The notes below the pieces were generated by a model, which saw nothing but the letters and a program-made list of their open reading frames with translations, had not been told where the DNA came from and ran no database searches. Shown here piece after piece: positions 3,213-58,414 of a stretch of DNA of 64,000 bases; the stretch's first letter is position 1, and each line of letters begins with the position of its first letter. This stretch comes from Stieleria varia (lineage in GTDB: Bacteria; Planctomycetota; Planctomycetia; Pirellulales; Pirellulaceae): assembly GCF_038443385.1 (NCBI RefSeq), contig NZ_CP151726.1:3720001-3784000 (forward strand), read 5' to 3'. Made by a program: the position numbers and the translations under genes.

Positions 3213-3342
3213 CTAGTGCATCATCCGGTCTTGATTTTGGGGTTAGCCGTTTTGGCGTTAGCCACGGTTGTGTGAAAACCGTGGCTAACGCCAAAACGGC
3301 TCATCTACCGAACCCACGTTCTAAGACTGGACGATGCACTAG
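3213..3342 (+). repeat. 130-bp CTAG-bounded inverted-repeat element, copy 1
   Basis: The element begins and ends with CTAG. Its terminal inverted repeats read CTAGTGCATCRTCCRGTCTT. Inside is a second, longer palindrome whose arms contain GTGGCTAACGCCAAAACGGC. Near-identical copies lie at 8291-8423 (same orientation) and 58207-58339 (opposite orientation). It has no coding capacity. The structure resembles a MITE; CTAG at both ends may be a 4-bp target duplication or part of the terminus. Confidence 0.85.
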
Positions 3343-3451
3343 GCAAAGTAGAACGTTCAGGCCAAGGATGGCCGGACAACCAATGACTCAACAAATTGAC
3401 AACAGCAGACGCCAAACCAGAGTCAGGTAAGGCGCAGGCAGGGAGGTCAGC

Positions 3452-4360
3452 GTGAATATCTCACGCAACGAGCACACGATCGCAACCACGTGCGAAGTCA
3501 GCGGGACGGGCTATTGGTCCGGACAGCGGGTTCGAGTGGTGATGTCGCCGGCCAGGGTCGGTACAGGCATCTTGCTGGTCCGCAGCGATCTGCCCGGATG
3601 TCCTTCCTGCCCAGCGACTGCAGAATTCCGTCATGATGCTCAGCTACGAACCATTCTGCAACGCGGTGATGCGCAGTTTCAGTTGGTGGAGCATTTGATG
3701 GCAGCGCTCTACGCGATGGAAATCGACAACTGCATCGTTGAGATCGACGCGGAGGAATTGCCTGGACTGGACGGCAGCTGCGCCGCATACGTGGACGCCC
3801 TGCAAAACGCGGGTCTGATCATCCAAGCGGCGGAAAAAAAACGCTTGGTCATTCGCGAACCCTTCACGATTCGGGCTGCAGATCGCACGATCTCCGCGGC
3901 GCCAGCCCCAAACGGTGTGACGGAGTTCGAATACGAGCTTTCGTTCGATCACGAATGCGTCATTCCCAATCAAAAATTCCGCAGCACATGCACTCCCGAT
4001 CGCTTCGCGCGTGAGATTGCACCGGCGCGGACGTTCATCACACAATCTCAAGCTCAGACGCTGAGAGCTCAAGGCGTTGCGTCTCATGTAACCAACAAAG
4101 ATTTATTGGTTTTTGGCGACCACGGACCGATAGAGAACACACTGCGATACTCCGACGAGTGCGCACGACACAAACTGTTGGACATGATCGGTGATCTAGC
4201 GTTGACGGGCCTGCAGTTGGTAGGACAGTTTTCGTCCGTTCGTGGAGGACACAACCTCAACGGGACGATGGCGACTCAATTGTTGCAGCTGGCTCAACAA
4301 CAAACCATGTCTCGTTCAAACACCAATCCAAACAGTCAGCAGCAAGATCGAGCCGCGTAA
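3452..4360 (+). CDS. lpxC: UDP-3-O-acyl-N-acetylglucosamine deacetylase (LpxC)
   Basis: LpxC catalyses the first committed step of lipid A synthesis, the zinc-dependent removal of acetate from UDP-3-O-acyl-GlcNAc in the cytoplasm. The 302-residue length is normal for the family. Visible hallmarks are VEHLMAAL near residue 80 (metal-binding His), a catalytic-region HKLLDMIGDLAL near 240 (second His and the Asp ligand) and GGHNLN near 267 (proton-transfer His). The start is GTG, preceded by GGGAGG at a spacing of about 7. lpxA follows 64 bp downstream, so the two are probably co-transcribed. Regulation is not evident from the sequence. The assignment is secure; acyl-chain specificity cannot be read from the sequence. 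Confidence 0.97.
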   Translation: MNISRNEHTIATTCEVSGTGYWSGQRVRVVMSPARVGTGILLVRSDLPGCPSCPATAEFRHDAQLRTILQRGDAQFQLVEHLMAALYAMEIDNCIVEIDAEELPGLDGSCAAYVDALQNAGLIIQAAEKKRLVIREPFTIRAADRTISAAPAPNGVTEFEYELSFDHECVIPNQKFRSTCTPDRFAREIAPARTFITQSQAQTLRAQGVASHVTNKDLLVFGDHGPIENTLRYSDECARHKLLDMIGDLALTGLQLVGQFSSVRGGHNLNGTMATQLLQLAQQQTMSRSNTNPNSQQQDRAA

Positions 4361-4424
4361 GGCACCGTCCGCACGTGGCGAACCATTTTCCTCCCCTCGT
4401 TTGATATGACCATTCGGAGTCACC

Positions 4425-5237
4425 ATGGGTGTCACCATCGCTCAGACCGCCGTCGTCGATCCCCGCGCAACGCTGGGAACGAACGTTCGAATCGGACATT
4501 TTTGCGTCATCGGTCCCGATGTCGTTATCGGTGATGACACGTTGATCGAAGATCACGTGATCATCTCAGGTGTTTGTCGACTGGGTTGCGAGAATCATAT
4601 CTTCCCCGGTACGGTCCTCGGCGCCGCTCCTCAAGACACCAGCTACAAAGGCACGCCGACGCGTGTCGAGATCGGTGACGGAAATGTGTTTCGCGAACAC
4701 TGCACGGTGAATCGCGCCACCGAAAAAGAAGACGGCGTGACGCTGGTCGGCGACAACAACTACTTCATGGCCGGTGGGCACATTGCTCACGATTGCAAAG
4801 TCGGCGACCGAATCGTTGCGGCAAACAACATCATGCTCGGCGGTCACGTTCGCGTCGGCAACGATGTGATCTTCGCCGGAGGCGTCGGCGTTTCCCACTT
4901 CGCAACCATCGGACAACTCAGCTTCGTCAGCGCAATGAGTCGTGTGTTGCACGATGTTCCGCCCTACACGATCGTCGACGGCCAGCCCACCAAGCCACGC
5001 GCCATCAACACGATCGGATTGAAGCGTCACGACTATTCCGAAGACGATATTCGGGTACTGACGGACGCCTTCAAACTGCTCTATCGCCAACGCGTTGGTG
5101 TTGAGGCAGCCCGCGAAGAAATGTTCAATCGCGGACCCATTCGCCCTGTCTTGCGTCACCTCTTTGACTGCGTGGATCGTTCCTGCAGCGGACGCCACGG
5201 ACGTGGCCAGGATCAGAGGAAAAAGAAAGCAGCATGA
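4425..5237 (+). CDS. lpxA: Acyl-ACP:UDP-N-acetylglucosamine O-acyltransferase (LpxA)
   Basis: LpxA transfers a 3-hydroxyacyl chain from ACP to UDP-GlcNAc, the first reaction of lipid A synthesis. The protein has 270 residues against 262 in E. coli. Its first two thirds are hexapeptide repeats forming a left-handed beta helix (for example GTNVRIGHFCVIGPDVVIG). The catalytic region GHIAHDC near residue 125 matches the E. coli segment, as do DVPPY and the C-terminal GLKRHDYS helical region. The C-terminal tail is lysine-rich (RKKKAA). The stop codon overlaps the start of the next gene by four bases (ATGA), which implies translational coupling with the Gfo/Idh dehydrogenase. Confidence 0.97.
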   Translation: MGVTIAQTAVVDPRATLGTNVRIGHFCVIGPDVVIGDDTLIEDHVIISGVCRLGCENHIFPGTVLGAAPQDTSYKGTPTRVEIGDGNVFREHCTVNRATEKEDGVTLVGDNNYFMAGGHIAHDCKVGDRIVAANNIMLGGHVRVGNDVIFAGGVGVSHFATIGQLSFVSAMSRVLHDVPPYTIVDGQPTKPRAINTIGLKRHDYSEDDIRVLTDAFKLLYRQRVGVEAAREEMFNRGPIRPVLRHLFDCVDRSCSGRHGRGQDQRKKKAA

Positions 5238-6322
5238 GCGGACTTCGCATTGCCGTCATCGGCGCCGGACACCTCGGACGAATCCACGCCAAACTGCTCG
5301 GCAGCGTTGACGGTGCAGAGCTCGTTGCGATCAGCGATCCGTTCGAATCGGCTCGTCAAAAAGCCGCTGAGCTTTACGACGTGCCCGTGGTCGCAAACTA
5401 TCTCGATCTGATCCCGAGAATCGACGCGGCGATCATTGCCGCTCCCACCGATCTGCACTGCGAGATCGCGGTCGAGTTGCTCAAAGCGGGAAAGCATGTG
5501 TTGGTGGAAAAGCCGCTGGCGAACACCGCAGAGGACGCCGATCGCTTGGCCGCACTGGCAGCATCCAAGCGTTTGACCTTGCAAGTCGGCCATGTGGAGC
5601 GATTCAACCCCGCGTTCACCGCGTTGGGCCAAGTCGGAGTGGATGTCAAGTACGTCGAAGCCGTCCGGGCGTCACGGTTTCCAGGGCGTTGCCTGGACGT
5701 CGGTGTCGTGATGGACTTGATGATCCATGACATCGATCTGGTGCTTTCATTGACCGAGGCCGCCGTTGCCAGTGTTTCCGCGAGCGGACTGGCCGTTGTC
5801 AGTGATCATGAGGACCTCGCCGAAGCACGCATCGAGTTCGAATGCGGCTTGGTCGCAAACTTGAAGGCGTCCCGGGTCAGTCCCACACCCGCACGAAACA
5901 TGCAAGTGTTCGGTTCCGGCGGATTTGCCAACATCGATTTCTCAGGTCCGACATTGACCACCGTTGTTCCCAGCGACGACATGGTCGATCGCTCGTTTGA
6001 TTTGTCGACGGAAACGGACAATCCACTGAGCTACGCTGACCAACTCTTTAGTGACCACTTGGGCGTCCAAGTACACCAGTTGGAGCCACGAAACGCCATC
6101 CTCGACGAGCTACATGACTTTGTCATCAGCATTCAATCGGGAATCGCGCCGACGGTAACGGGGGTTGCCGGTGCTCGCGCAGTGACCGTTGCGGAAATGA
6201 TTCTCGATTCCATCGCAGCACGTCGCTGGTACAGCGACAGTGTCACCACGGAGATCGGCCCAGCAGCCGTCGCCCGTCAGCGAATCGAAGTCGCTAGCCG
6301 ACGCCAACGCCGTTCGGCCTAG
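5234..6322 (+). CDS. Gfo/Idh/MocA-family NAD(P)-dependent oxidoreductase coupled to lpxA
   Basis: The 362-residue protein starts with a Rossmann nucleotide-binding motif (IAVIGAGHLGRIHAKLL) and carries the Gfo/Idh EKPLA motif near residue 94, followed by the alpha/beta substrate domain with GHVERFNPAF. No signal peptide is present, so it is cytoplasmic. It overlaps lpxA by 4 bases. In Acidithiobacillus and Leptospira a Gfo/Idh enzyme beside lpxA (GnnA) oxidises UDP-GlcNAc at C3 so that an aminotransferase (GnnB) can make the 3-amino sugar used for amide-linked lipid A. That role is a reasonable guess, but no GnnB-like gene is next to it. The stop codon TAG lies inside the CTAG target duplication of the adjoining insertion sequence; the reading frame is intact. 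Confidence 0.9.
   Translation: MSGLRIAVIGAGHLGRIHAKLLGSVDGAELVAISDPFESARQKAAELYDVPVVANYLDLIPRIDAAIIAAPTDLHCEIAVELLKAGKHVLVEKPLANTAEDADRLAALAASKRLTLQVGHVERFNPAFTALGQVGVDVKYVEAVRASRFPGRCLDVGVVMDLMIHDIDLVLSLTEAAVASVSASGLAVVSDHEDLAEARIEFECGLVANLKASRVSPTPARNMQVFGSGGFANIDFSGPTLTTVVPSDDMVDRSFDLSTETDNPLSYADQLFSDHLGVQVHQLEPRNAILDELHDFVISIQSGIAPTVTGVAGARAVTVAEMILDSIAARRWYSDSVTTEIGPAAVARQRIEVASRRQRRSA
6319..6322. repeat. Target-site duplication CTAG (left) of the IS1380 element
   Basis: CTAG directly precedes the left terminal repeat and is matched by CTAG at 8056-8059 after the right one. It contains the TAG stop codon of the upstream dehydrogenase gene, so insertion kept that gene whole. Confidence 0.85.
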
Positions 6323-8055
6323 CCCGGATATTGCATCCATCGGTTATTGACGCGGGGTTGCGAGTTCGATACGTCCGCTTTTGGGAAATGATTTGATTTT
6401 GATGGGGGCTTTCGCAGCGCCGCGCAGAAGGCCCCCCCTCCCCCAAGCGAATGATTCGCTTCGTGGTTGCGTTTTCCTCGAGGGTTGCCGCCCTTAGTCG
6501 CTTCGGCAAAGACGCGCCATGACTTCGTTAAAGAGACTCGCGCTAGGGCAGTGAGTCGGAAGGTGAAAAATCACTCGCCGACAAGTCACGCGTACTCGCG
6601 CGGCAATCTTGAACAGACGCAAGCGGATCGTATCCACACGCATCCGAGCATGTGTAGTGCCCTGAAGTGCCAACCGGCGGATTCCGTCGACCAACACATA
6701 CGCCAACGACGACAGAATCAAACGAAACTGATTGGCCATGAAGTCTGTGCAGCTGGTTCGATCGGCAAACAAACACATCTGTTGTTCCTTGATCCGATTC
6801 TCCATTTCACAACGCTGACAATAACGTTCTCGATAGAAATCCTTCGGGTTCCAAGCAACACTGCAGATCGTTCCAGGATCGAGGATTTGTCGAACCTGTT
6901 TGCCGTCCACGCGAGGGCGATGATAAGTCGGCTCGACGATCCCTTGGGCACTGGGCAGGTTTGTCACGACGAAACGCGGGTTGGCTCCCTTGTCGCCGTG
7001 CTCCGCCTTGCCGAGAACCCAGCGATGACGGTCCCATGTTTCCTGAGTGCGATAACGGAACCATTTGAAAAGCGTTCGCGTGGATTTAAATTTCAAATGC
7101 TCAAGTCGAGCACGGGTCATTTCGCAGGCAATATTGCGGATCAAGACGTTGTTCTTGGGCAATCCGAAGACATAGTAGACGTCGTTTTTATCGCACCAAC
7201 GCATGAGTCTTTCATCAGAATATCCGCCATCGCCACGTAAAATGATTTTCGTCTCCGGCCATCGCGAACGAATCTTTTGAACCAGCAGTTTGGTCACCGC
7301 GCGAGCGTGATGGGCTGCGCCAAAACTGCTGGGACGTAGGTAGGCGACGAGCAACTGATAGCCACAGAACACGTACAGCGGCAGAAAACAGTGGCCGTCG
7401 TAGAATCCATTGAAGTAGTTTTTGTCTTGATTGCCGTGCGTCGGATCATCTGTGGCATCATAGTCCAAGGTGATTTCTTCGGGCGGTTTCTCGTAGCTGT
7501 CCAGAAAGGTGTTTACGATTTCTTCGTGGATAGCCAGCATCGCTTTGCGATCGACACGATTTTCGAAACGTGAATGCGTTGACGGACTGGCCAAAGGAAC
7601 GTGTTCGTCGCTGTCATAGTCATTCTGTGCAGGCGTGCGTCCGGCAGCGACTTGAAAGGCTGCATCATGCCGCAAGTGGGCGTGATCGTTGCCGTCCTCG
7701 TAGCCTGCCGCAATTCCAAAGATACGACTGGTCAGGATCTCGGCCTGCGGATGTGCGGTGTAGATAGGATCGCGTGGATCGGCAATACAAGCGTCGACTC
7801 GGCGGATCAGGCCGAGTCGTTGATCGACTTCGCGAAGCAGTAGCAATCCGGCGTCGGACGTGAGCGTTCCGCCATCAAAATCAAACTCGACAGCTTGGCG
7901 ACGGAGGCGTTTCAGTGCAGCTCGTTTTCGATTACGCTTTGTCATTGCCGAGAGCCTTGGGCTTGGGATGTGTGAAGTGTTGTAACTCCAATGCATACCA
8001 GGACTAAGGCTCTTGCGCTATAGGGGGAAACAAATTTTCGGATGCAATATCCGGG
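6323..8055 (-). mobile_element. Complete IS1380-family insertion sequence, 1733 bp
   Basis: Perfect 16-bp terminal inverted repeats (CCCGGATATTGCATCC) sit at 6323-6338 and, as the complement, at 8040-8055. Directly outside are 4-bp direct repeats CTAG at 6319-6322 and 8056-8059, so the element still carries its target duplication. The single transposase gene on the minus strand fills most of it. Length, terminal repeats and target size fit the IS1380 family. Perfect ends and an open reading frame suggest a recent, possibly active insertion. Confidence 0.93.
6494..7945 (-). CDS. IS1380-family DDE transposase
   Basis: The protein has about 483 residues if started at the ATG at 7945, where the usual basic beginning MTKRNRKRAALKRL appears; an ATG at 7996 would add 17 unconserved residues. 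Candidate DDE residues are the Asp group in LDYDATDDPTHG (about 161-167), Asp 239 in ILRGDGGYSDERL and Glu about 382 in YCQRCEMENRIKEQ, the last being a strong IS1380 signature. It cuts and pastes the element by binding the terminal repeats. No frameshift or internal stop is seen. The gene points opposite to the lpx genes. Expression may start from within the right end of the element. Confidence 0.93.
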   Translation of the reverse strand: MTKRNRKRAALKRLRRQAVEFDFDGGTLTSDAGLLLLREVDQRLGLIRRVDACIADPRDPIYTAHPQAEILTSRIFGIAAGYEDGNDHAHLRHDAAFQVAAGRTPAQNDYDSDEHVPLASPSTHSRFENRVDRKAMLAIHEEIVNTFLDSYEKPPEEITLDYDATDDPTHGNQDKNYFNGFYDGHCFLPLYVFCGYQLLVAYLRPSSFGAAHHARAVTKLLVQKIRSRWPETKIILRGDGGYSDERLMRWCDKNDVYYVFGLPKNNVLIRNIACEMTRARLEHLKFKSTRTLFKWFRYRTQETWDRHRWVLGKAEHGDKGANPRFVVTNLPSAQGIVEPTYHRPRVDGKQVRQILDPGTICSVAWNPKDFYRERYCQRCEMENRIKEQQMCLFADRTSCTDFMANQFRLILSSLAYVLVDGIRRLALQGTTHARMRVDTIRLRLFKIAARVRVTCRRVIFHLPTHCPSASLFNEVMARLCRSD

Positions 8056-8062
8056 CTAGCAA

Positions 8063-8288
8063 TGGACTGCTCAAAGTATGGTGTTGTTTCTTTTTGGGTT
8101 TGCGCAAGTTTATGTCCCTACTGCCGGCGCAGCTGGTGACCCCAGTGAGCCTCAGACGCTAGCCGTGGGCCTGAGGCGGATTGTGGTGCCGGCCCACGGC
8201 TAGCGTCTGAGGCTCACTTTGATTGCGATGCATGGGACAAAAACATGGACTGAAAGAACAATGTCAACACCAAACTTTGAGTAGTCCA
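8063..8288. repeat. Nested palindromic element
   Basis: Outer arms of 24 bp (8063-8086 and 8265-8288) are inverted repeats with two mismatches (TGGACTGCTCAAAGTATGGT begins the first). Inside, 28-bp perfect arms (8144-8171 and 8191-8218) flank a 19-base loop. A partial match to the outer arm occurs at about 46604-46625. The core GCTAGCGTCTGAGG resembles other palindromes in the window. RNA from it would fold into a long hairpin. Confidence 0.75.
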
Positions 8289-8290
8289 GC

Positions 8291-8423
8291 CTAGTGCATC
8301 ATCCGGTCTTGATTTTGGGGTTAGCCGTTTTGGCGTTAGCCACGGTCGTGTCACGAAAACCGTGGCTAACGCCAAAACGGCTCATCTACCGAACCCACGT
8401 TCTAAGACTGGACGATGCACTAG
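8291..8423 (+). repeat. 130-bp CTAG-bounded inverted-repeat element, copy 2
   Basis: This 133-bp copy has the same orientation and termini as the element at 3213-3342 and differs from it by only a few bases, mostly around the central loop where it is three bases longer. It lies between two other palindromic repeats and downstream of the AI-2E permease gene. Confidence 0.85.
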
Positions 8424-8449
8424 CGCCAGAATCGCGACTTGAGCTTTCA

Positions 8450-8550
8450 TACCAGCACGACGCGCAAGCGAGTGATTCTTTAATACCAGGACGACGCGCA
8501 AGCGAGTGATTCCCGGCGTTTTATACACTCGCTTGCGCTTCGTGCTGGTA
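8450..8550. repeat. Three-arm palindromic repeat, CAAGCGAGTGA family
   Basis: Two direct copies of a 28-bp unit containing GACGCGCAAGCGAGTGATT (8450-8478 and 8484-8511) are followed by an inverted copy at 8526-8550. Either direct copy can pair with the inverted one. The same arms form the hairpin at 37401-37456. It sits just downstream of the AI-2E permease gene and might end transcription. Confidence 0.75.
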
Positions 8551-8637
8551 TTGACATCGTTTCCAATCAAGGTCGATTCACGATCGCAGCAATAGAGAAG
8601 CCGTTTTGGAGACGGCGGGAGATCTCGACGACCAAAT

Positions 8638-9882
8638 TCAGGTTGGACAAGTTGCTTCGTTGCCTTTGGCAGAATCCAAGTGTGGCGAAGCGATGATGTC
8701 GTGGCGGTGATGGGAATCGATGGACTCATCAGCGATCGGCTCATCAGTGTCGGGATCCTCCACGTTGGGGACTTCTGCGCCCAGAACATACGCCAGTGGT
8801 TGCAATCCTTCGTAGCCTTCACAAGCCATTCTAGCGGCGATCAGGATCGGGACGGATAAGAACACGCCCATGAATCCCCACATCCAGCCCCACAAGACGA
8901 TCGAAAGGAATACCACCACGGGGCTCATGCTCATCGAGCGACCTAGAATGGATGGCGTGATGAACTGGCCTTCCAGCGAAGTGAGAGTCAAGAAAGTTCC
9001 GGTGACGATGAATGCATAGTACGGTTGTCCAAAGTTGACCAGTGCGACGACAAAGATGATCATTGCACCGCAGATAGCACCGACGATTGGGATGAAATTG
9101 AACGCGAATGCCATGGCTCCCCACAGAATGGGTGACGGCATTCCGAGCAACCACATTGCCAGTCCAACGGAAACTCCGAGGCAGGCATTGATCGCGGTGA
9201 TCTTTGCGAGGTAGTTCCCAAGCCCTTCTTGAACGTTCGCAATGACCTCGATCAATCGGCGTCGGGCGGTGAAACCGGGCAACGCATGCATGATGCTGCG
9301 TAACAGATCGTCACCGGTCGCCAGCAAGAAATAAAGCAGTGCAAGACATATCGAGACGAAGGAGACGGCGTTGCCCGTGCCACTGAGATAGACAAAGTTT
9401 CCCGTCCATTCAGGTTGCTCAATTTCAACCGGCACAGGTTCCTCTGCATTGGTGGCAGATGTAGAGTCGTCCCCTCCGTCCGATGAGTCGGATAGTTCTT
9501 CTTTTGCTTCATCAACCGCTTTGAGTTTGTCCGTCAAAAACGAGAGTTTCTCTTTGACAACGGAAACATTTCTGGGAGCGTCCGCGATCATTTGCTGTGC
9601 CGGCTCGGCGACCAGATAGCCTGCAACTCCCAAAATGATCAACACGCAGAGAATGATTCCACCGGAGCCGATGGCCGGATGAATTCCAAAACGCTTGGCT
9701 TGGCGAACCACCGGTCGCAGCACCATGTACAGAACCAGTGAAGTGACGACGGGCACCACCATGTTCCGGGCGTAGTACAGGGCATACAGAGTGAGCATGA
9801 CCGCACAGACGCGAACCGCGATGACCCCAGCAGGTCTGGAACCATCGCTGCCCGTTTCGTCGTTTGGTTCCGTGTCGGTCAT
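8638..9882 (-). CDS. AI-2E family membrane permease (PF01594-like), first paralogue
   Basis: The 414-residue membrane protein has about seven to eight hydrophobic segments. Two lie near the N-terminus (about 22-65), followed by a third (about 75-95), then a soluble region with an acidic, low-complexity linker (about 130-160, SDSSDGGDDSTS), then the C-terminal membrane half with the family-typical FNFIPIVGAICG and LEGQFITPSILGR motifs. AI-2E proteins are named for the exporter of autoinducer-2, but many members have other or unknown substrates such as Na+/H+ exchange. A second paralogue lies at 34870-35961. It is followed within 5 bp on the same strand's upstream side by the PRC-barrel gene, so the two form an operon (PRC-barrel gene first). 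Confidence 0.92.
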   Translation of the reverse strand: MTDTEPNDETGSDGSRPAGVIAVRVCAVMLTLYALYYARNMVVPVVTSLVLYMVLRPVVRQAKRFGIHPAIGSGGIILCVLIILGVAGYLVAEPAQQMIADAPRNVSVVKEKLSFLTDKLKAVDEAKEELSDSSDGGDDSTSATNAEEPVPVEIEQPEWTGNFVYLSGTGNAVSFVSICLALLYFLLATGDDLLRSIMHALPGFTARRRLIEVIANVQEGLGNYLAKITAINACLGVSVGLAMWLLGMPSPILWGAMAFAFNFIPIVGAICGAMIIFVVALVNFGQPYYAFIVTGTFLTLTSLEGQFITPSILGRSMSMSPVVVFLSIVLWGWMWGFMGVFLSVPILIAARMACEGYEGLQPLAYVLGAEVPNVEDPDTDEPIADESIDSHHRHDIIASPHLDSAKGNEATCPT

Positions 9883-9886
9883 CTGA

Positions 9887-10453: not shown

Positions 10454-10687
10454 GGTTCTGTTCCCAGTGCTGCTGTGAAGAGTTCGGCCAATCCAGTGAT
10501 GTGGCCTATGCTTCACTTCTCTGCAGCATAGGCTGGACCAATCACACAGGATGCAGCCCATTTTCGGCAAAGACGTGTAGAACGATCATTACTTGCTCAT
10601 TCACAGAACGGCGGTCTGATCGCTGCTTGATCGCATTGGTTGTTTCGATATCAGCACAGTAGCGTTCGCCTGGGCTGTTAAAGATTT

Positions 10688-14264: not shown

Positions 14265-14291
14265 CGTGATGGTACCACGAGTGAGCCCAAG

Positions 14292-50664: not shown

Positions 50665-52027
50665 CAAACTTTGCGCTGGCGCGGGGTTGCATTTCGAGAC
50701 ATGCCCCACGTGATCAGACGGTAGTTGAGGCCCCGCCAGTTTAAATGGAGATTCCCGAAGTGTCCGCCAGAATCGGCGAATAAGCGGCTAGCGTTCTATG
50801 GGACTGGGCTTCGCGTTGGAGTGGTAGGCTTTAGCCGATCTGCCTGCTCACTGAGACCAGGGGGCGGATCGGCTGAAGCCTACCACTCCAACCGCTGGAC
50901 TTCAGGCTCTCGCCGATCTGGCTGTTCTCTGAGACCAGGGGGGCGGATCGGCTGAAGCCTACCACTCCAACCGCTGGACTTCAGGCTCTCGTCGATCTGG
51001 CTGTTCTCTGAGACCAGGGGGCGGATCGGCTGAAGCCTACCACTCCAACCGCTGGACTTCAGGTTCTCGCCGATCTGGCTGTTCTCTGAGACCAGGAGGC
51101 GGATCGGCTGAAGCCTACCACTCCAACCGCTGGACTTCAGGCTCTCGCCGATCTGGCTGTTCTCTGAGACCAAGAGGGCGGATCGGCTGAAGCCTACCAC
51201 TCCAACCGCTGGACTTCAGGCTCTCGCCGATCTGGCTGTTCTCTGAGACCAGGAGGGCGGATCGGCTGAAGCCTACCACTCCAACCGCTGGACTTCAGGC
51301 TCTCGCCGATCTGGCTGTTCTCTGAGACCAGGGGGGGATCGGCTGAAGCCTACCACTCCAACCGCTGGACTTCAGGCTCTCGCCGATCTGGCTGTTCTCT
51401 GAGACCAGGGGGCGGATCGGCTGAAGCCTACCACTCCAACCGCTGGACTTCAGGCCCTCGCCGATCTGGCTGTTCTCTGAGACCAGGGGGCGGATCGGCT
51501 GAAGCCTACCACTCCAACCGCTGGACTTCAGGCTCTCGCCGATCTGCCTGCTCACTGAGACCAGGGGGGCGGATCGGCTGAAGCCTACCACTCCAACCGC
51601 TGGACTTCAGGCTCTCGCCGATCTGGCTGTTCTCTGAGACCAGGAGGGCGGATCGGCTGAAGCCTACCACTCCAACCGCTGGACTTCAGGCCCTCGCCGA
51701 TCTGGCTGTTCTCTGAGACCAGGGGGCGGATCGGCTGAAGCCTACCACTCCAACCGCTGGACTTCAGGCTCTCGCCGATCTGGCTGTTCTCTGAGACCAG
51801 GGGGGCGGATCGGCTGAAGCCTACCACTCCAACCGCTGGACTTCAGGCCCTCGCCGATCTGGCTGTTCTCTGAGACCAGGGGGGCGGATCGGCTGAAGCC
51901 TACCACTCCAACCGCTGGACTTCAGGCTCTCGCCGATCTGGCTGTTCTCTGAGACTAGGGGGGCGGATCGGCTAAAGCCTACCACTCCAACGGTCTTTGA
52001 GATATTCCATGCTCTTGCCAGGCCAGG
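50665..52027. other. 1.36 kb stretch almost wholly filled by a tandem repeat
   Basis: About 50665-50815 is unique DNA with the promoter side of the LEPR gene; 50816-51990 is the tandem array described separately; 51991-52027 leads into the 3' end of the exported oxidoreductase gene. Open frames on the minus strand are in-phase stretches of the repeat. Confidence 0.85.
50816..51990. repeat. Minisatellite: 15 tandem copies of a 77-79-bp unit
   Basis: The block GGATCGGCTGAAGCC recurs 15 times, starting at 50866, 50945, 51023, 51101, 51180, 51259, 51336, 51414, 51492, 51571, 51650, 51728, 51807, 51886 and 51965. The spacing varies between 77 and 79 because of a G run whose length changes. Each unit is partly palindromic, and the left edge (50816-50840) is an inverted copy of 50867-50891, making a 25-bp-arm hairpin with one mismatch. 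Between genes 50664 (start, minus) and 52028 (end, minus). Confidence 0.95.
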
Positions 52028-53398
52028 CTAAACGTTGATCTCGTAACCTTTGCGGTTTTCTCGTGAAAGAAACGCGTTGGCTTCGTCATCGCCGATGATC
52101 TCCCGTTTGGCGGGATCCCAATTCAATTCGCGTCCCAATCGGATCGCGATGTTTGCTAGGTGACAGGTCTCCAGCATTCGGTTGTGAGACCATACGTCGG
52201 AGATCGGTTGCTTGCGGCTCCGCATTCCTTCGATGAAATTGGCGGTGTGGTTTTCGCTGACCGGTCCGCCATAGACGTCTTCCACGGCTCCCTCGGGCAA
52301 CGGATTGCTTTCGAGGTCTTCAACCGGCTTGCCCGTCAGTTTGCCGCGATTGACAAAGAATCGCCCTTTGGTTCCTTCGAACAAAATTCCGTTGTCACCT
52401 TCGCTGGTGATGACCATCGGGATATCACCGGGCATGTTGGCGTGAATTTCGAACTTGGTCGGCGAGTTGTATTGATCGCTGACCGTCGGATAGCCGTCTT
52501 TGTACTCGACGGGCAGGGAATAGCTGACAGGCGTGATCTTGTTGGGACCGGAATCACCTGCACCCAACGCCCAGGTGGCGATGTCGACATGGTGTGCACC
52601 CCAGTCGTTCATTTGGCCGCCGGAGTACTCGTACCAATTTCGCCAAGCGTAGTGGCAGTTCGTGTACAGCGGAACGCCACCGCCATAGCCGACTCGCATC
52701 TCTGGCAATGCTCGGTAGGGTACTTTGGGCGCTGGGCCAAGCCACATGTCCCAATCAAGTCCTTCGGGGACATCGATCGCTGGAATCTTGGGCGAGCCAG
52801 TGGCGCCGTTGATGCCGCAAGTGACCTTTTGGATGTCACCGATGCGACCGTCGCGGATCAAAGCGATCGCTTTAAGGAATCGGTGATCGTTCTCGGTGCG
52901 TTGCATCGTTCCGACTTGGAAAACGCGTCCGGTCTGCTTGACGATCTTTTCGATCAGCTTGCCTTCGTCGATCGTCAAGGTCAGCGGTTTTTCGCAGTAG
53001 ACGTCCTTGCCCGCCAACATGGCTTCGACGGAAATCTTGGTGTGCCAATGATCCGGGGCGGCGATCATGACCGCGTCGATGTCGTCGCGTTCGAGCAGTT
53101 TGCGATAGTCGCTGTACTCGTCAGCTTTCTTGCCGGTTCGCTCCTTGAGTTTTTCGTTGGTTGCGCCCAGGACGTTGGCGTCGACGTCAGCAAATGCAGC
53201 GAAGTCCGCGAACTTGGTCGACTTGCTGGTGATCGTCCAGCCTTGATTGCGCAGTCCGATGGTGGCGAAGACAGGGCGTTCGTTCGGAGAATCTTGGCCG
53301 CGAGAAACGGCACTGGTTCCCAGAAATACGCCTGCCGCGGTTGCCGCACTTGTCGTTTGCAGGAAGTCGCGTCGGGTGAATTGACGTTTAGCAGCCAT
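52028..53398 (-). CDS. Tat-exported Gfo/Idh/MocA-family oxidoreductase
   Basis: The second of two adjacent ATGs (53398) is preferred, being 7 bases after GAGG. The 456-residue protein has a twin-arginine signal (FTRRDFLQTTSAATAAGVFL), so the folded, cofactor-loaded enzyme goes to the periplasm. The nucleotide domain (about 45-180) has DAVMIAAPDHWHT and EKPLTLTIDEGKLI; the substrate domain has GGQMNDWGAHHVDIATWALG near 265, a family hallmark. Planctomycetes have many such paralogues, often in polysaccharide loci; the substrate is unknown. It lies between the minisatellite and the flavodoxin-like gene, 90 bp away on the same strand. Confidence 0.93.
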   Translation of the reverse strand: MAAKRQFTRRDFLQTTSAATAAGVFLGTSAVSRGQDSPNERPVFATIGLRNQGWTITSKSTKFADFAAFADVDANVLGATNEKLKERTGKKADEYSDYRKLLERDDIDAVMIAAPDHWHTKISVEAMLAGKDVYCEKPLTLTIDEGKLIEKIVKQTGRVFQVGTMQRTENDHRFLKAIALIRDGRIGDIQKVTCGINGATGSPKIPAIDVPEGLDWDMWLGPAPKVPYRALPEMRVGYGGGVPLYTNCHYAWRNWYEYSGGQMNDWGAHHVDIATWALGAGDSGPNKITPVSYSLPVEYKDGYPTVSDQYNSPTKFEIHANMPGDIPMVITSEGDNGILFEGTKGRFFVNRGKLTGKPVEDLESNPLPEGAVEDVYGGPVSENHTANFIEGMRSRKQPISDVWSHNRMLETCHLANIAIRLGRELNWDPAKREIIGDDEANAFLSRENRKGYEINV

Positions 53399-53488
53399 CA
53401 TGAATCCTCTATGGAAATCGGGGGGAAGGTGTCAGGAGGTAACGGGGAACATTGAAAAGTCTGTGCGAAACTAAAAGTCTGTGCGAAA

Positions 53489-54052
53489 CTATTTGCCCAA
53501 ATCTTTGAAGCGCTCGTAGTTTTGGTTGAGTGGGTGGGCGTCTTCGCGACCACCAATCATACACGCTGTCCATTCGGAAAGTCGTCGCCCGAGTCGCTGG
53601 CAGGCTGCTTGGACGCGATCCTCCTCGGGCGCGCCGGCGGAGATTGCTCCGTAATGGGCAGAGAATTTGATTCCGGAATAGTCGGTCAATCCAAAAACAA
53701 GGAAGCCGTAGTTGAGCAAGATCGACATCAGTGACATGCATGTCCATTCCTGGCCGCCACCCCAGGCGCCTGCGGAAGAAAACACGCAAGCGATCTTGCC
53801 GTCACGTTTGCCCCAATTCTCGATCGGTTGTTGATCCCACCACTGTTTCATTTGCCAACTGACGGTTCCATAGTTGGTGGGCGATCCCAATGCGATGCCG
53901 TCGCACCAATCCAGATCAGTGTGATCGGCTTCGTCGATGCTCTTCAAACGAACCTCGACCGCGTCCACTTGACGCGCACCTTCGGCCACCAGCTCGGCCA
54001 TCCGCTGAGTGTTCTGTGTGTTGGAGTGATAAAGGACCAGGACGTTCGTCAT
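53489..54052 (-). CDS. Flavodoxin/NAD(P)H:quinone oxidoreductase-type flavoprotein
   Basis: The 187-residue protein shows a flavodoxin fold: VLVLYHSNTQNTQRMAELVA (FMN phosphate loop, residues 4-23), ALGSPTNYGTVSWQMKQWWD near 54 (WrbA-like GSPT loop) and VFSSAGAWGGGQEWTCMSLM near 87. The last 40 residues hold conserved polar residues. WrbA-like enzymes carry out two-electron reduction of quinones and protect from redox cycling. Here only general family membership is claimed. It reads divergently from the CE1-CE6 gene, and a short repeat lies 40 bp upstream of its start. Confidence 0.9.
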   Translation of the reverse strand: MTNVLVLYHSNTQNTQRMAELVAEGARQVDAVEVRLKSIDEADHTDLDWCDGIALGSPTNYGTVSWQMKQWWDQQPIENWGKRDGKIACVFSSAGAWGGGQEWTCMSLMSILLNYGFLVFGLTDYSGIKFSAHYGAISAGAPEEDRVQAACQRLGRRLSEWTACMIGGREDAHPLNQNYERFKDLGK

Positions 54053-54585
54053 TTTTTCGGTTTATTGAATCGAGAATGTCAAGTTTCCACGTGGGATTCG
54101 TGACCTCGTCCACTTCTAATTGGATGTCAAGTTGATCAACTCTGAGCACAATTCTAGTTACTTTGCGCCCCGACAAGGGTCACATGATACCATTTGGATC
54201 GATCCAGGATTTATCCTTGGCAGCATCTGCTTGGCAATCTCTGAGTCTGTCGAACAAGTAGCCCATCAGAAAGCTCGTTTTCAGCAGAACGCCCGCCGGA
54301 TTCTGGGGTTCACCGGAGTATCAAACGGGCTTGCTCTCATGTGCTCTGGTCATCGTTTTCAATCGCTACACTTTGTCGGATGTGAAAAAACTCCGCCCCT
54401 TTGCGCAATTCCTCATGGAAGGTGAGTGCAAAGCAGCGTTAAGAATGGTGAGTGCATGAGGTCGCGAGTCCTGCCGCGGGGGACTCTTGACCTCGTTCAC
54501 TGCTGATTGCGGGGGACTCGTGACCTCGTCCACTACTGATTGCCGCGGAAATCTCTTCAAACTCTTTTCAAAACAAGGTCGTATT
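54053..54585. other. Divergent intergenic region with a 32-bp repeat
   Basis: Shared upstream region of the flavoprotein and double-esterase genes. It contains four copies of a 32-33-bp sequence (54091-54122, an inverted one at 54443-54474, and tandem ones at 54478-54510 and 54511-54543). No gene is supported in the middle part. Confidence 0.65.
54443..54543. repeat. Inverted and tandem 32-33-bp repeats before the CE1-CE6 gene
   Basis: The unit contains GGGGGACTCGTGACCTCGTC and ends CACTACTGATTGC. Two direct copies (54478-54510 and 54511-54543) follow an inverted, more diverged copy (54443-54474). A further copy (54091-54122) lies near the other promoter of this divergent region. The last copy ends 43 bases before the ATG of the esterase gene. 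Confidence 0.8.
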
Positions 54586-56631
54586 ATGTTCTGTCGTTTG
54601 CCTCTGCTTGCATGCACCACGCTTCTGCTGCTGGGAACTGTCGGATGGGCTCAAGATGACGTGCCTGTGGATGACTGGAAACCGGCCACCACGAACCAGG
54701 ATGGCAGGGAGTACCCTCAAGTCAATTCGGAAGGACGCGTTCGCTTTCGCATCCACGCACCCGACGCGAAAAGTGTTGCCTGCACTTTCCGCGACAGCAG
54801 CGAATTTGTGAAAGATGCCGATGGCAATTGGACGGGCTACACTCGCAAGTTGGATGAAGGATTCCATTATTACGAATTGATCATCGACGGTGCGAAGGTC
54901 CCGGACCCGAACAGCAAGTACTTTTTCGGGGCCATGCGTTGGGGCAGCGGTGTGGAAGTGCCCGCGAACGACAAAGAATTTTACGCGGTCAAGAAGGTCC
55001 CTCATGGTCAGATCCGCGAAGTCCTTTTTTACTCCGAAAGCACAGAACAAGATCGTCGCGCATTCATCTACACCCCGCCGGGATACGACGCCGACCAACA
55101 AAAACGATATCCCGTGCTTTACCTACAACATGGTTGGGGTGAGAACGAGTACGGCTGGAGCGTCCAAGGCCACGCCGGTTTGATCATGGACAATTTGATT
55201 GCCGATGGAACCTCCAAACCATTCATCATCGTGATGACCTACGGCATGACCAACGATGTGCGTCCAGGTGGCATCGGTGGCTTTGACATCACCCATTTCG
55301 AAACCGTGCTCGTGGATGAGCTGATCCCGTATGTTGATTCCCATTTTCGCACGTTGACGGACCAGCCCAACCGAGCGATGGCGGGGCTGTCGATGGGCGG
55401 AATGGAAACCAAGACGATCACGCTGCGAAACCTGGACAAGTTTTCGCACATTGGTCTTTTCAGCGGCGGTTCGATCTCGATGGAAGACGTGGAGAAGACC
55501 GAAGGGTTCAAGGAGAAAGTCAAACTTGTTTTTGTCAGCTACGGCAGCAAAGAAGTCGGCGGTGGAGGCCGCCCGCGTCGAGGTGGTGACCCGGAAGCGA
55601 ACAGCAAGGCGTTGAAGGACGCGGGCATCAACAGCCACTACTACGTCTCTCCGGAAACAGCCCACGAATGGCAAACATGGCGTCGTAGTTTGCGTGAGTT
55701 CGCTCCGCTGTTATTTGCCGATGACGCGACGATTGCCAAGCGAACCAGCCTCGAAAAGCAGATGGAAGAGAACGCCAGCGAAGTCGTAGCGAATGATCCG
55801 AACGGCGACGACGCGAAGAAGCAGACCGCAGTCGAGTTGAGCTCTCAGGTGGATCCCAATTTTCACATCTACCTTTGCCTGGGACAGTCGAACATGGAAA
55901 GTGGCGGTCGCATGAATGAGGCGGACCGCGAAGTCGATGACCGGTTCCTGGTCATGGCAGATTTCGACAATGCCGATCGTGGCTGGGAAAAGAACCGTTG
56001 GTACCAAGCGATTCCGCCGCTCGCTGCGCGTGGCCGAGGAATCTGCATGGTCGATGGCTTTGGCAAGACTCTGGTCGCCGGCCTTCCAGAAAACGTGCGA
56101 GTCGGTGTGGTCAAGGTCTCCGTTCCCGGTTGCAAGATTGAGCTTTTCGACAAGAACGCCTTTCAGTCCTACATCGAGAATGAACGAGACTGGATGAAAA
56201 ATATCGTGCGAAACTACGAGGATAACCCCTATCAATACTTGGTGGATATGGGCAAAACGGCGCAACAGCATGGCGTGATCAAAGGCGTATTGTTGCATCA
56301 GGGCGAGTCCAACACCGGTGACAAGGCTTGGCCTCAAAAAGTCAAAACGGTTTACGACAACCTGATGGCCGATTTGAACTTGAATCCTGAAGACGTTCCG
56401 CTGCTGGCCGGCGAGATGGTGCATGCCGACCAACAAGGACGCTGTGCCAGCATGAACGATATCTTGGCCGAACTGCCCAGCACGATCCCTAACGCTCACG
56501 TGATTTCATCGGCCGGTTGTCCAACCGATGACCGACTGCATTTCAACTCCGAGGGATCCCGGATATTCGGAAGCCGTTATGGCGAAAAGATGCTTGCTTT
56601 GCTCGGACAGCAAACCGCGTCAGCAAATTAG
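54586..56631 (+). CDS. Bifunctional carbohydrate esterase (CE1 feruloyl/acetyl esterase plus CE6 acetyl esterase)
   Basis: The 681-residue exported protein starts at the ATG at 54586 (AAGG upstream) with a signal peptide ending GWAQ. A CBM48-like beta domain (about 45-145, EGRVRFRIHAPDAKSVACTF) is followed by a CE1/esterase-D domain (about 150-385) with nucleophile elbow GLSMGG (Ser about 269), and HEW (His about 360). A linker leads to a CE6/SASA domain (about 428-675): GQSNMES with Ser about 435, HQGESNTGD, and the DDRLHFNSEG block with His about 652. Such double esterases remove feruloyl and acetyl side groups from xylan. The xylanase gene starts 52 bp downstream, so the two form an operon. 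Confidence 0.93.
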   Translation: MFCRLPLLACTTLLLLGTVGWAQDDVPVDDWKPATTNQDGREYPQVNSEGRVRFRIHAPDAKSVACTFRDSSEFVKDADGNWTGYTRKLDEGFHYYELIIDGAKVPDPNSKYFFGAMRWGSGVEVPANDKEFYAVKKVPHGQIREVLFYSESTEQDRRAFIYTPPGYDADQQKRYPVLYLQHGWGENEYGWSVQGHAGLIMDNLIADGTSKPFIIVMTYGMTNDVRPGGIGGFDITHFETVLVDELIPYVDSHFRTLTDQPNRAMAGLSMGGMETKTITLRNLDKFSHIGLFSGGSISMEDVEKTEGFKEKVKLVFVSYGSKEVGGGGRPRRGGDPEANSKALKDAGINSHYYVSPETAHEWQTWRRSLREFAPLLFADDATIAKRTSLEKQMEENASEVVANDPNGDDAKKQTAVELSSQVDPNFHIYLCLGQSNMESGGRMNEADREVDDRFLVMADFDNADRGWEKNRWYQAIPPLAARGRGICMVDGFGKTLVAGLPENVRVGVVKVSVPGCKIELFDKNAFQSYIENERDWMKNIVRNYEDNPYQYLVDMGKTAQQHGVIKGVLLHQGESNTGDKAWPQKVKTVYDNLMADLNLNPEDVPLLAGEMVHADQQGRCASMNDILAELPSTIPNAHVISSAGCPTDDRLHFNSEGSRIFGSRYGEKMLALLGQQTASAN

Positions 56632-56683
56632 TCACGGAAACATTCGCCGCTTTGTCGTGATCAATCACCTGAGGGAATCCCCG

Positions 56684-58147
56684 ATGAGAAAAACTGTTCG
56701 TTTGTTTTTGTGCACATTGCTTTTCGCTGTCGTCGTGACGCGGGGTGTCTCTTCAAGACCCGCGTTTGCTGAAGAGATCGCAGGGCAATGGCACGCATTG
56801 TTCGACACTCCCGGCGGCACGCAGACCTACCACTTTGATTTTCAGAACCAGGACGGCGAAGTGACCGTCAAGGCGGTCGTCGAATCCGGGGATCAGAAAC
56901 GTGACGTTGAGTTTGAGGAAGCGAAATTGGTCGGGGACACCGTGTCGTTCGTAGAACGGCGGAGTTTCGGCAATCGAGAGCTTCGCATCGAGTACACCGG
57001 CAAGCTCGGTGAGAAAGAGATCACGATGGTCCGCAAGATCGGCGACTTTGGCAGTCAAGAATCGCCGGCGACTCGTGATCTACCAAAACGAGAACCCGCT
57101 CCGACGACGCCTGTGGTCGAAGTGCACATTGATCGCTTGATCAAGGATGCCTTTCAAGATTCGTTTCGCATCGGCACCGCGGGTGATTTCCCTGCCCGCT
57201 ACTCAGATCAGGAATTGCAAGTTGCGTCAGAGCACTTCAACGCCGTGACTCCAGAGAACTGTATGAAACCGGAGCGTGTCCATCCGCAAGAGAGTACGTG
57301 GCGATTTGAGCAGCCCGATGCTTTGGTCCAATGGGCTACCGAGAACAAAATGAGTGTCCACGGTCATACACTTGTGTGGCACGCCCAGACGGACGACTGG
57401 TTCTTTCGCGACGGCGATCGCGAAGTCGTGAAGCAGCGGATGAAAGATCACATCGACACACTGGTGGGACGGTACAAGGGAAAGATTCAGAGTTGGGATG
57501 TCGTCAACGAAGCGATCAATGATGGCGGGAACCAAGAAACGGGGCAGACCGAGAATCTACGCAACTCCAAATGGATGCAGGCCCTCGGTCCCGAGTTCCT
57601 GACACTGGCCTTCAAGTTCGCTCACGCAGCCGACCCCGACGCGATTCTGTATTACAACGACTACAACATCGAGTCCGGGCCGAAACACGAGAGTTCCATG
57701 GTGTTGCTGCGGCGGCTATTGAAAGACGGCGCGCCGATCCATGCGGTCGGGATTCAAGGGCACTGGCGTACCGGCAGCGTTCCCTATGAAGACATCGAAA
57801 AGGCGATCTTGGACTACTCGTCGCTGGGATTGAAGGTCAGCATCACGGAGCTTGATGTGACGATTCGAGGAGCCTCCGGCGGCCAATTCGGCGGCGGTTT
57901 TGGTCGAAGACAGCGTGGCAACAGTACGCCGCCGTCGGTTGCCGACTTGAACGCTCAAGCGGAAGCCTACGCAAAACTGTTCGCGATTTTTCGTAAGCAT
58001 GAAGACGTCATCGAAAGGGTCACGTTCTGGGGATTGAACGACCGTCGCACGTGGCGTTTCGGGCAGCACCCCCTGGTGTTTGACGCCAACAATCACCCCA
58101 AGCCCGCGTATCCGGCGATCGTGAATGAAGCGTCGAGAGGCGAGTAG
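56684..58147 (+). CDS. GH10 endo-1,4-beta-xylanase
   Basis: From the ATG at 56684 (GAGGGA upstream) the protein has 487 residues. A signal peptide (about 1-30) leads to a small beta-rich N-terminal domain (about 32-120, QTYHFDFQNQDGEVTVKAVV) with no known family, then a GH10 TIM barrel (about 145-485). Hallmarks are AVTPENCMKPERVHP, HGHTLVWHAQ, the acid/base DVVNEAIND (Glu about 276), GIQGHW and the nucleophile SITELDVTI (Glu about 389), and WGLNDRRTW. A Gly-rich loop (GASGGQFGGGFGRRQRG) follows the nucleophile. It cuts the xylan backbone. It probably acts with the esterase encoded upstream in the same operon. Confidence 0.96.
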   Translation: MRKTVRLFLCTLLFAVVVTRGVSSRPAFAEEIAGQWHALFDTPGGTQTYHFDFQNQDGEVTVKAVVESGDQKRDVEFEEAKLVGDTVSFVERRSFGNRELRIEYTGKLGEKEITMVRKIGDFGSQESPATRDLPKREPAPTTPVVEVHIDRLIKDAFQDSFRIGTAGDFPARYSDQELQVASEHFNAVTPENCMKPERVHPQESTWRFEQPDALVQWATENKMSVHGHTLVWHAQTDDWFFRDGDREVVKQRMKDHIDTLVGRYKGKIQSWDVVNEAINDGGNQETGQTENLRNSKWMQALGPEFLTLAFKFAHAADPDAILYYNDYNIESGPKHESSMVLLRRLLKDGAPIHAVGIQGHWRTGSVPYEDIEKAILDYSSLGLKVSITELDVTIRGASGGQFGGGFGRRQRGNSTPPSVADLNAQAEAYAKLFAIFRKHEDVIERVTFWGLNDRRTWRFGQHPLVFDANNHPKPAYPAIVNEASRGE

Positions 58148-58414
58148 AAGTGAAAGTGGGGTGTTTGAAGTGGGCGTGATGAAACAACTCGTTCCAGCGT
58201 TTCCCCTAGTGCATCGTCCAGTCTTAGTACGTGGGTTCGATAAATGAGCCGTTTTGGCGTTAGCCACGGTTTTTGTGACACAAACGTGGCTAACGCCAAA
58301 ACGGCTAACCCCAAAATCAAGACTGGACGATGCACTAGTCGTTTGAGGCGCAGGCTGCGCTAGATGCGGCGTAGCAGTCCGGATGGTAGTGCCACCTGTG
58401 CCTTCGGCTACGGG
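58148..58414. other. Intergenic stretch with one copy of the 130-bp element
   Basis: Between the xylanase and ferredoxin genes (convergent ends). It contains copy 3 of the CTAG-bounded element (58207-58339); the rest shows nothing recognisable. Confidence 0.65.
58207..58339 (-). repeat. 130-bp CTAG-bounded inverted-repeat element, copy 3
   Basis: The 133-bp element lies in opposite orientation to copies 1 and 2, with CTAG at both ends and the CTAGTGCATCGTCCAGTCTT terminus. It begins 60 bp after the xylanase stop codon and may act as its terminator hairpin. Confidence 0.85.

What the first reader, a model, noticed from the sequence alone, without database searches (positions are those of the whole stretch)
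3213..58339. Three-copy, about 130-bp CTAG-bounded inverted-repeat element
Copies at 3213-3342, 8291-8423 (same orientation) and 58207-58339 (opposite) share terminal repeats CTAGTGCATCRTCCRGTCTT and an inner palindrome with GTGGCTAACGCCA. This is the structure of a MITE. Each copy begins and ends with the palindrome CTAG, which is also the target duplication of the IS1380 element in this window, although the terminal repeats of the IS differ. They may be mobilised by a CTAG-targeting transposase encoded elsewhere.
Basis: partly seen in the sequence, partly recalled or inferred. Interest (0 to 1): 0.7.

Follow-up and report, generated by a model that had tools for sequence, protein, structure and literature searches.

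The report
IS630-derived MITE with a shared palindrome
The repeat is a real miniature transposon of about 130 base pairs, present in roughly 110 copies in this bacterium; its ends are cut-down ends of an IS630-type jumping gene that was not found in this genome, and a similar central hairpin also turns up inside miniature transposons with different ends in related bacteria.

Summary
Confirmed and extended. The three window copies (3213-3342, 8291-8423, 58206-58338) belong to a family of about 110 in the 9.72-Mb genome: 226 terminal-repeat hits against 2 in the control; 87 left-right pairs rebuilt from 200 listed ends. Insertion into CTAG is shown by single-CTAG empty sites in paralogous repeats and by a copy splitting a condensation-domain gene. 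The ends derive from IS630-family elements: 16 of 17 terminal bases match an IS630 in Rhodopirellula rubra, and the left end still encodes the transposase's last codons (PKIKTG* against PQIKTG*). The right end resembles 5' ends of complete relatives. No matching transposase was found in this genome. It is an IS630-derived MITE, like RUP of pneumococcus: a known kind. Less ordinary: its palindrome arm recurs elsewhere in the family inside MITEs with other ends, mainly TAAGCAGG-type, with single two-sided IS1380-type and TTAGCTGG-type cases; three insertions carry matching off-consensus 4-bp repeats, where IS630 normally duplicates TA; some copies grew by tandem amplification of one hairpin arm, up to 12 units.

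The parts
3213..3342 (+). MITE copy 1 (genome 3723213-3723342), CTAG to CTAG; loop 3 nt shorter; between a minus-strand ORF and lpxC
3213..3232 (+). copy 1 left terminal repeat with CTAG (IS630 3'-end side)
3245..3301 (+). copy 1 hairpin: arms 3245-3268 and 3278-3301
3323..3342 (-). copy 1 right terminal repeat with CTAG (IS630 5'-end side)
8291..8423 (+). MITE copy 2 (genome 3728291-3728423); another repeat (8063-8288) ends 2 nt before it; between the IS1380 element and an AI-2E transporter gene
8291..8322 (-). copy 2: remnant of the IS630 transposase 3' end, read as NPKIKTG*CT
8323..8382 (+). copy 2 hairpin: arms 8323-8346 and 8359-8382
8404..8423 (-). copy 2 right terminal repeat with CTAG
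58206..58338 (-). MITE copy 3 (genome 3778206-3778338), opposite orientation; downstream of a GH10 gene
58247..58306 (-). copy 3 hairpin: arms 58247-58270 and 58283-58306
6319..8059 (-). IS1380-family element with CTAG at both ends (considered as mobiliser and rejected)

Best explanation
It is a non-autonomous miniature element derived from an IS630-family (Tc1/mariner-like) insertion sequence by internal deletion, keeping about 33 bp of the IS 3' end (including the last transposase codons) and roughly 30-35 bp of the IS 5' end around a REP-like inverted pair of arms. An IS630 transposase supplied in trans binds the 16-17 bp terminal repeats, excises the element and inserts it into the palindrome CTAG (inferred from the family). 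The supplying IS was not found in this genome, so the copies are probably dormant unless such an IS returns (search result shown, dormancy inferred).
For: Genome-wide family: 43 direct matches at 98% or more over 132-133 of 133 bases, with only 40 of 138 candidates scored; 226 terminal hits against 2 control; 109 left and 107 right ends against 0 control; 87 pairs from the 200 listed of these 216 ends, 74 of them 131 bp from TA to TA. Low divergence: among the 74, 46 distinct sequences, identical groups of 12, 8 and 6, mean pairwise identity 0.964. Target: CTAG on both sides in 79 of 87. Empty sites: 4987087 against 2887783 (96% over 124 bp; target GTAG, empty copy GTGG), 2987148 against 2986996 (93% over 122), 1571352 against 106911 (90.5% over 74), 3841733 against 4267329 (88% over 76). 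Gene interruption: the flanks of 5545233 hit successive stretches of one Condensation profile, 49-203 and 223-327. IS630 origin: the terminal 17 bases differ by one base from the 3' ends of IS630 fragments in R. rubra (L090, L121) and Blastopirellula (L078) in 40 of 87 left ends and 77 of 87 right ends, by 2-3 bases in the rest; transposase C-terminus read inside the MITE end; both ends resemble complete IS630s of 1241 and 1228 bp in the right order, whose second frames pass the NCBIfam IS630 and Pfam DDE_3 cut-offs; 8 of 8 IS copies examined (of 10 listed in two genomes) sit in CTAG.
Against: No complete autonomous element with these ends was seen; the R. rubra and Blastopirellula examples are 3' fragments at contig starts or truncated, so the right-end comparison rests on relatives with different terminal bases, judged by eye. 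IS630 elements are reported to duplicate only TA (PMC2170065, passages), while three copies here look like 4-bp duplications. No transposition has been observed.
Confidence: 0.92

Rival explanations
1. The MITE is mobilised by IS1380-family transposases, which also use CTAG and are present in the window.
For: The IS1380 at 6319-8059 is flanked by CTAG; 20 of 174 flank sides of the 87 copies begin with an IS1380-type end, up to 4 mismatches allowed.
Against: IS1380 ends (CCCGGATATTGCATC) do not resemble GTGCATCRTCCRGTCTT, which matches IS630 ends at 16 of 17 bases and carries IS630 transposase codons. Sharing CTAG explains the abutment.
Confidence: 0.02
2. The unit is a REPIN moved by a RAYT (Y1) transposase, and the CTAG ends are incidental.
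For: The arms are REP-like imperfect palindromes in inverted pairs, and single or tandem units without recognised ends occur in other genomes.
Against: In the own genome the 215 exact arm 16-mers found in fetched DNA (of 224; the DNA was fetched around element ends, and 9 were not seen) lie in or within 200 bp of elements or in an arm array of one element. Homology of the ends to IS630 and single-CTAG empty sites point to a DDE transposon. No GTAG tag was seen. RAYT genes were not searched for.
Confidence: 0.04
3. The one intact resident IS630 (genome 8737.6-8738.5 kb) mobilises the MITE despite different ends.
For: It is an IS630 with an open 365-aa transposase frame.
Against: Its ends are TAAGCACCCCAKCARCG, unlike the MITE ends.
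Confidence: 0.04
4. It is a host functional repeat (terminator or RNA-processing hairpin) spread by recombination, not by transposition.
For: Very stable hairpin; fewer copies inside ORFs: 20 of 87 with a spanning ORF of 150 codons or more, against 50 of 105 other CTAG sites (the control sites come mostly from the window and the 2-3 kb loci, so they are not matched).
Against: Terminal repeats, CTAG duplication, empty sites and gene interruption. Depletion in ORFs is also expected from selection.
Confidence: 0.02

Closest known systems
RUP of Streptococcus pneumoniae with IS630-Spn1 (as described in PMC2229807, passages seen)
   Same: 107 bp, 108 copies, ends like those of an IS630, TA-containing targets, often found at IS elements.
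   Different: Here CTAG-specific, with a long palindrome shared with other MITEs, arm amplification, and no partner IS found in the genome. Sequences were not compared directly.
Correia/NEMIS elements of Neisseria (PMC2229807, passages seen)
   Same: Short, TIR-bounded, TA at termini.
   Different: Different host; sequences not aligned here.
IS630 / ISY100, Tc1/mariner-like elements (PMC2170065, passages seen)
   Same: Transposase family of the autonomous relatives; target containing TA; the reference list names Tenzen and Ohtsubo 1991 on CTAG preference of IS630.
   Different: ISY100 duplicates TA; three copies here show matched 4-bp repeats. The autonomous relatives here have two overlapping frames.
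MITEPsy1 of Pseudomonas syringae (PMC3189936, passages seen)
   Same: 100-bp MITE that duplicates 4 nt, CTAG or YTAA, on insertion.
   Different: Attributed there to ISPsy2 (table: IS5?); its terminal repeats differ.
REP/REPIN palindromes (PMC3733652, passages seen)
   Same: Inverted pair of REP-like arms; that paper notes REP dimers inserted in longer palindromes in A. variabilis.
   Different: No GTAG tag seen, and in the own-genome DNA in hand the arms occur only with the MITE.

Membership tests
MITE | Short element with terminal inverted repeats and no transposase gene | tested here: met
   130-133 bp in the window; 20-bp ends with CTAG; no room for a transposase
MITE | Many dispersed near-identical copies | tested here: met
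   About 110 copies; mean pairwise identity 0.964 among 74 copies of 131 bp
MITE | Target-site duplication and empty sites | tested here: met
   CTAG on both sides in 79 of 87 copies; single-CTAG empty paralogues
IS630-derived | Ends match an IS630-family element | tested here: met
   Left end: 16 of 17 terminal bases and transposase codons of the R. rubra IS630. Right end: similar to complete relatives only
IS630-derived | Target contains TA | tested here: met
   TA at the left end in 86 of 87 and at the right end in 87 of 87
IS630-derived | Duplication of TA only (2 bp) | tested here: inconclusive
   79 of 87 uninformative (CTAG is a palindrome); 3 fit 4 bp, 3 fit TA or one later mutation, 2 fit neither without mutation. 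G012: of 27, 14 CTAG/CTAG, 4 one-sided changes that fit TA or mutation, 9 otherwise changed
IS630-derived | Autonomous partner in the same genome | tested here: not met
   No hit below E = 1 to the cognate C-terminus; one intact IS630, with other ends, plus a 47-bit and a 24-bit match under the cut-off
IS1380-derived MITE | Ends match IS1380 | tested here: not met
   Different terminal repeats
REPIN | Inverted pair of REP-like palindromes | tested here: met
   Two 24-nt arms in the window copy; 23 of 40 places in other genomes have an inverted second arm
REPIN | GTAG tag next to the REP | tested here: not met
   Bases before the arm vary and show no GTAG in the 20 rows printed, judged by eye
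REPIN | Associated RAYT gene | not tested
RUP / Correia | Sequence homology | not tested
   Compared by description only

The most novel reading that the evidence does not exclude
The inner palindrome is a portable REP-like module that has been captured independently by MITEs with unrelated ends (IS630 CTAGTG-type, TAAGCAGG-type, IS1380-type, and one TTAGCTGG-type) across one planctomycete family. MITE bodies and MITE ends would then be exchangeable parts, and the palindrome may itself help mobility or bind a host factor. In addition, this IS630 branch may duplicate 4 bp (NTAN) rather than TA.
Probability: 0.4. Interest if true: 0.7.

Novelty: new variant of a known kind. Interest (0 to 1): 0.5.

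Why it matters
Bacterial MITEs are usually explained as internally deleted IS elements whose interior is unimportant (general knowledge). Here the arm of the interior hairpin is recognisable inside MITEs whose ends are at chance level to each other. If that holds up, the palindrome is a selected or self-propagating part, and a direct test is possible (move a marked MITE with and without it). The family also offers about 110 insertions, single-CTAG empty sites, and a few off-consensus targets that bear on 2-bp against 4-bp duplication in this IS630 branch.

Tried and rejected
IS1380 as mobiliser: ends differ. Resident IS630 at 8738 kb: ends differ. An autonomous element hidden between distant ends: the long pairs (554, 590, 775 bp) turned out to be a nested repeat and tandem arm arrays, not genes. 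A scan of genome contigs for the 17-base terminal core gave 76 loci, of which I count 7 as real relatives (L066, L078, L090, L104, L116, L118, L121), by eye from the bases around the match; the rest look like chance matches to a short pattern in 257 billion bases. Viral contigs gave two transposase relatives at 53% and 42% identity without the terminal pattern. Faster divergence of ends than of interior between this genome and G012 was tested and not found: terminal segments 0.71 and 0.65, hairpin 0.73. My first figure for arm conservation between end types, 0.86, was inflated: 16 of the 25 bases were fixed by the query, and it counted four CTAGTG variants as different types. Regrouped, on 13 hand-picked rows, the 9 unselected arm bases are 0.60 identical between groups (0.52 within), against 0.27, 0.28 and 0.39 in the flanks and 0.35 in the loop (ungapped, so a one-base shift in G193 and G176 lowers it). 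The idea that all genus members carry the arm was rejected: 10 of 14 have none. Literature: no paper with 'Pirellulaceae', 'transposase' and 'IS630'; 9 listed for 'planctomycet' with 'miniature inverted-repeat transposable', of which only PMC3733652 was opened, by passages; 3 listed for IS630, MITE, CTAG, two of them opened by passages. Subscription papers are mostly not in the library, so this is weak evidence of absence. That some other IS630s also use CTAG is recalled, not looked up.
Full report
WHAT IS THERE. The three reported copies are in the sequence, the third one base lower than stated. Their 20-base ends occur 6 times in the window against 0.02 expected. The window lies in a single-contig genome of 9,719,866 bases. 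A search with copy 2 gives 43 direct matches at 98-100% identity over 132-133 of 133 bases, but only 40 of 138 candidates were scored. A pattern search for the end gives 226 hits with up to 3 mismatches, against 2 for the reversed control. Longer left-end and right-end patterns give 109 and 107 hits against none. The listings show 100 of each; these 200 ends form 87 convergent left-right pairs and leave 26 unpaired. So there are about 110 copies. Of the 87, 74 are 131 bp from TA to TA; the 74 hold 46 distinct sequences, with identical groups of 12, 8 and 6, and a mean pairwise identity of 0.964, minimum 0.878. The 87 lie in both orientations (39 and 48) and all along the chromosome.

IT INSERTED. 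For each of the 87 copies the two flanks were joined with one TA and compared with the own-genome DNA in hand. Several copies sit inside other repeats whose other members are empty: 2987148 against 2986996 (92.6% over 122 bp), 3841733 against 4267329 (88% over 76 bp) and 1571352 against 106911 (90.5% over 74 bp) with a single CTAG, and 4987087 against 2887783 (96% over 124 bp) with target GTAG and empty copy GTGG. Not every spanning match in that output is an empty site; those at tandem copies (1217638-1218060, 5464818-5465100) are artefacts of neighbouring copies. At least one copy splits a gene: the pieces flanking 5545233 match positions 49-203 and 223-327 of one Condensation profile. At 3541277 the piece downstream is the start of a sulfatase domain and the frame is open across the insertion point. 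Overall, fewer copies lie in long frames: 20 of 87 have a spanning frame of 150 codons or more, against 50 of 105 other CTAG sites; the control sites come mostly from the window and the longer loci and are not matched. The three window copies lie between the family-assigned genes.

WHERE ITS ENDS COME FROM. A scan of genome contigs for the 17-base core found 76 loci. Most look like chance, but five carry what looks like the end of an IS630-type transposase gene (L066, L078, L090, L104, L121) and two are 79-bp miniatures in a Caldilineaceae genome (L116, L118). In R. rubra the gene ends ...YPQIKTG-stop, with the stop inside the terminal repeat, and the fragment matches the IS630 model over its C-terminus (44 bits, under the whole-protein cut-off). 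The R. rubra end GTGCATCATCCAGTCTT differs by one base from 40 of 87 MITE left ends and 77 of 87 right ends, by two or three from the others; none of the 87 is identical. The left end of MITE copy 2, read backwards, gives NPKIKTG-stop-CT; the IS gives PQIKTG-stop-CT. Copies whose left end reads CATCG instead of CATCA lack that stop. The MITE end is thus a relic of the transposase gene's tail. Complete relatives of 1241 and 1228 bp (L157, L180, L153) have two overlapping frames; the second passes the IS630 and DDE_3 cut-offs, the first matches the IS630 model below it. Their 3' ends read ...GATTTTGGGGTAGA or similar, as does the MITE left end (GATTTTGGGGTTAG); a 5' end reads ...TTAGGAATTGGGGTTTCC, like the MITE right end ...TTAGAACGTGGGTTCGG. 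Eight of eight copies examined, of ten listed in two genomes, sit in CTAG. G004, in the own genus, carries eight near-identical copies of another member; the three examined have or contain ends CTAGTGGTGCGTCA. A ninth IS630 there (L319) showed no CTAGTG end.

THE PARTNER WAS NOT FOUND. The cognate C-terminus has no hit below E = 1 in the own genome. DDE_3 finds one intact IS630, with different ends (TAAGCACCCC...), and a fragment; the IS630 model adds one 24-bit match. The two other MITE-rich members of the genus, G003 and G012, have no IS630 above the cut-off (0 and one 24-bit match), while G004 and G007, which do, have neither the MITE nor its arm. A Blastopirellula genome of the same family carries the matching end (G033, which by identical coordinates is G157, the record of L078).

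TARGET AND DUPLICATION. Both sides read CTAG in 79 of 87 copies. CTAG is a palindrome and the IS630 literature reports duplication of TA (PMC2170065, passages), so those 79 do not tell 2 bp from 4 bp. Of the other eight, three have the same off-consensus tetramer on both sides (GTAG/GTAG, CTAC/CTAC twice), which random pairing of left and right tetramers reaches in 2 of 200,000 trials. Under a TA-only rule each would need a precise second mutation. Three others (CTAG/CTAA, CTAG/CTAT, ATAG/CTAG) fit TA duplication or one later mutation, and two (CTTG/CTAG, CTAG/GTAG) fit neither without mutation. In G012, of 27 copies 14 read CTAG/CTAG, 4 read CTAG/CTAA (twice), CTAG/CTAT and CTAG/CTAC, which speaks for TA or later mutation, and 9 are otherwise changed. 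I read this as suggestive, not settled.

STACKING. Because CTAG remains on both sides, a new element can insert at the junction. Of 174 flank sides, 37 begin with one of three other repeat ends, loosely matched (20 IS1380-type, 12 GTGGTCTGGGACA, 5 AAAGSCTGACGTAC), against 43 of 548 sides of other CTAG sites in the same DNA. Thirty-three of 87 copies are involved.

ARM AMPLIFICATION. Thirteen of 87 pairs are not 131 bp. Several carry head-to-tail copies of one arm with its neighbourhood: 44-bp left-arm units two or three times (4915172, 2414338, 7100384), a 51-bp right-arm unit 10 times (4267805), and a 58-bp right-arm unit 12 times (4582519). An unpaired copy at 6867132 has a similar array. 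Slippage at the hairpin during replication is the likely cause (inferred).

THE SHARED PALINDROME. In the own genome the exact 16-mer GGCGTTAGCCACGGTT occurs 224 times. Of the 215 in fetched DNA, 174 are inside the 87 pairs, 37 within 200 bp of unpaired ends, and 4 in the array just mentioned; 9 were not seen. In 199 genomes of the family, 37 have the 16-mer, in 15 of 68 genera; 18 of the 37 have five or more, and the reversed control gives single hits in 3 genomes. In the own genus it is 4 of 14. I fetched 40 places from 15 of these genomes, chosen by hand from a capped listing. By script, 12 of 40 have TAAGCAGG-type ends (10 on both sides), 2 have an IS630 CTAGTG end on one side, 2 have IS1380-type ends (one on both sides: G145 L368), 1 has a TTAGCTGG-type pair, and 23 have none of these. 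Six of those 23 (G187) seem by eye to have degenerate TAAGC ends; several others look like single or tandem REP-like units. Of 40, 34 have AGCCG just upstream and 23 have an inverted second arm within 60 nt; shuffled controls give 0 and 0. On 13 hand-picked rows in four end groups, the 9 arm bases not fixed by the query are 0.60 identical between groups, against 0.27 to 0.39 in the flanks and 0.35 in the loop. The earlier figure of 0.86 for the whole arm includes 16 bases fixed by the query. The same kind of arm therefore sits inside miniature elements with several kinds of end, though the evidence for the IS1380-type and TTAGCTGG-type cases is one two-sided example each. The TAAGCAGG-type ends themselves recall ends of another IS630 branch (G007, CTAAGCACGTSAGCAYG). 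Capture of a mobile REP-like unit by different MITEs, followed by amplification, is my preferred reading; replacement or divergence of the ends of one old MITE is the alternative.

COMPARISON. In size, copy number and IS630-like ends this is closest to RUP of pneumococcus (107 bp, 108 copies, IS630-Spn1; PMC2229807, passages). MITEPsy1 also duplicates CTAG or YTAA but is assigned to ISPsy2 (PMC3189936, passages). REP dimers inside longer palindromes have been noted in A. variabilis (PMC3733652, passages). TIME elements (PMC4133298, abstract and outline) show mosaic miniature transposons with Tn3-family ends. The element is thus a new IS630-derived MITE; the shared palindrome and the possible 4-bp duplication are what set it apart.

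Noticed in passing
window 8063-8288: A second, unrelated repeat with inverted ends like TGGACTGCTCAAAGT.TGGTGTTG lies between the IS1380 element and MITE copy 2; related sequence occurs beside and inside other MITE copies (for example 2874730).
   Followed up: partly
window 6319-8059: IS1380 element with a 500-aa frame and CTAG at both ends; end-like sequences CCCGGATTATTCAT beside many MITE copies suggest an IS1380-derived miniature family.
   Followed up: partly
genome 1217638-1218060: Three MITE copies in tandem with period 146 bp, separated by a short spacer.
   Followed up: no
genome 2986900-2987300: A local tandem array with units around CGTTTAACGACTAGCCG, one unit of which received a MITE.
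   Followed up: no
L066:502-646 and L104:5684-5828: A 145-bp IS630 deletion derivative that seems to carry part of the transposase C-terminus: an intermediate between IS and MITE.
   Followed up: partly
L116:2936-3014 and L118:1430-1508: A 79-bp miniature with the end GTGCATCATCCAGTCTT in a Caldilineaceae (Chloroflexi) genome, so this end type is not confined to planctomycetes.
   Followed up: no
L378 (G188), about C30:104391-104883: The arm repeats with a period of 159 bp without recognised MITE ends.
   Followed up: no
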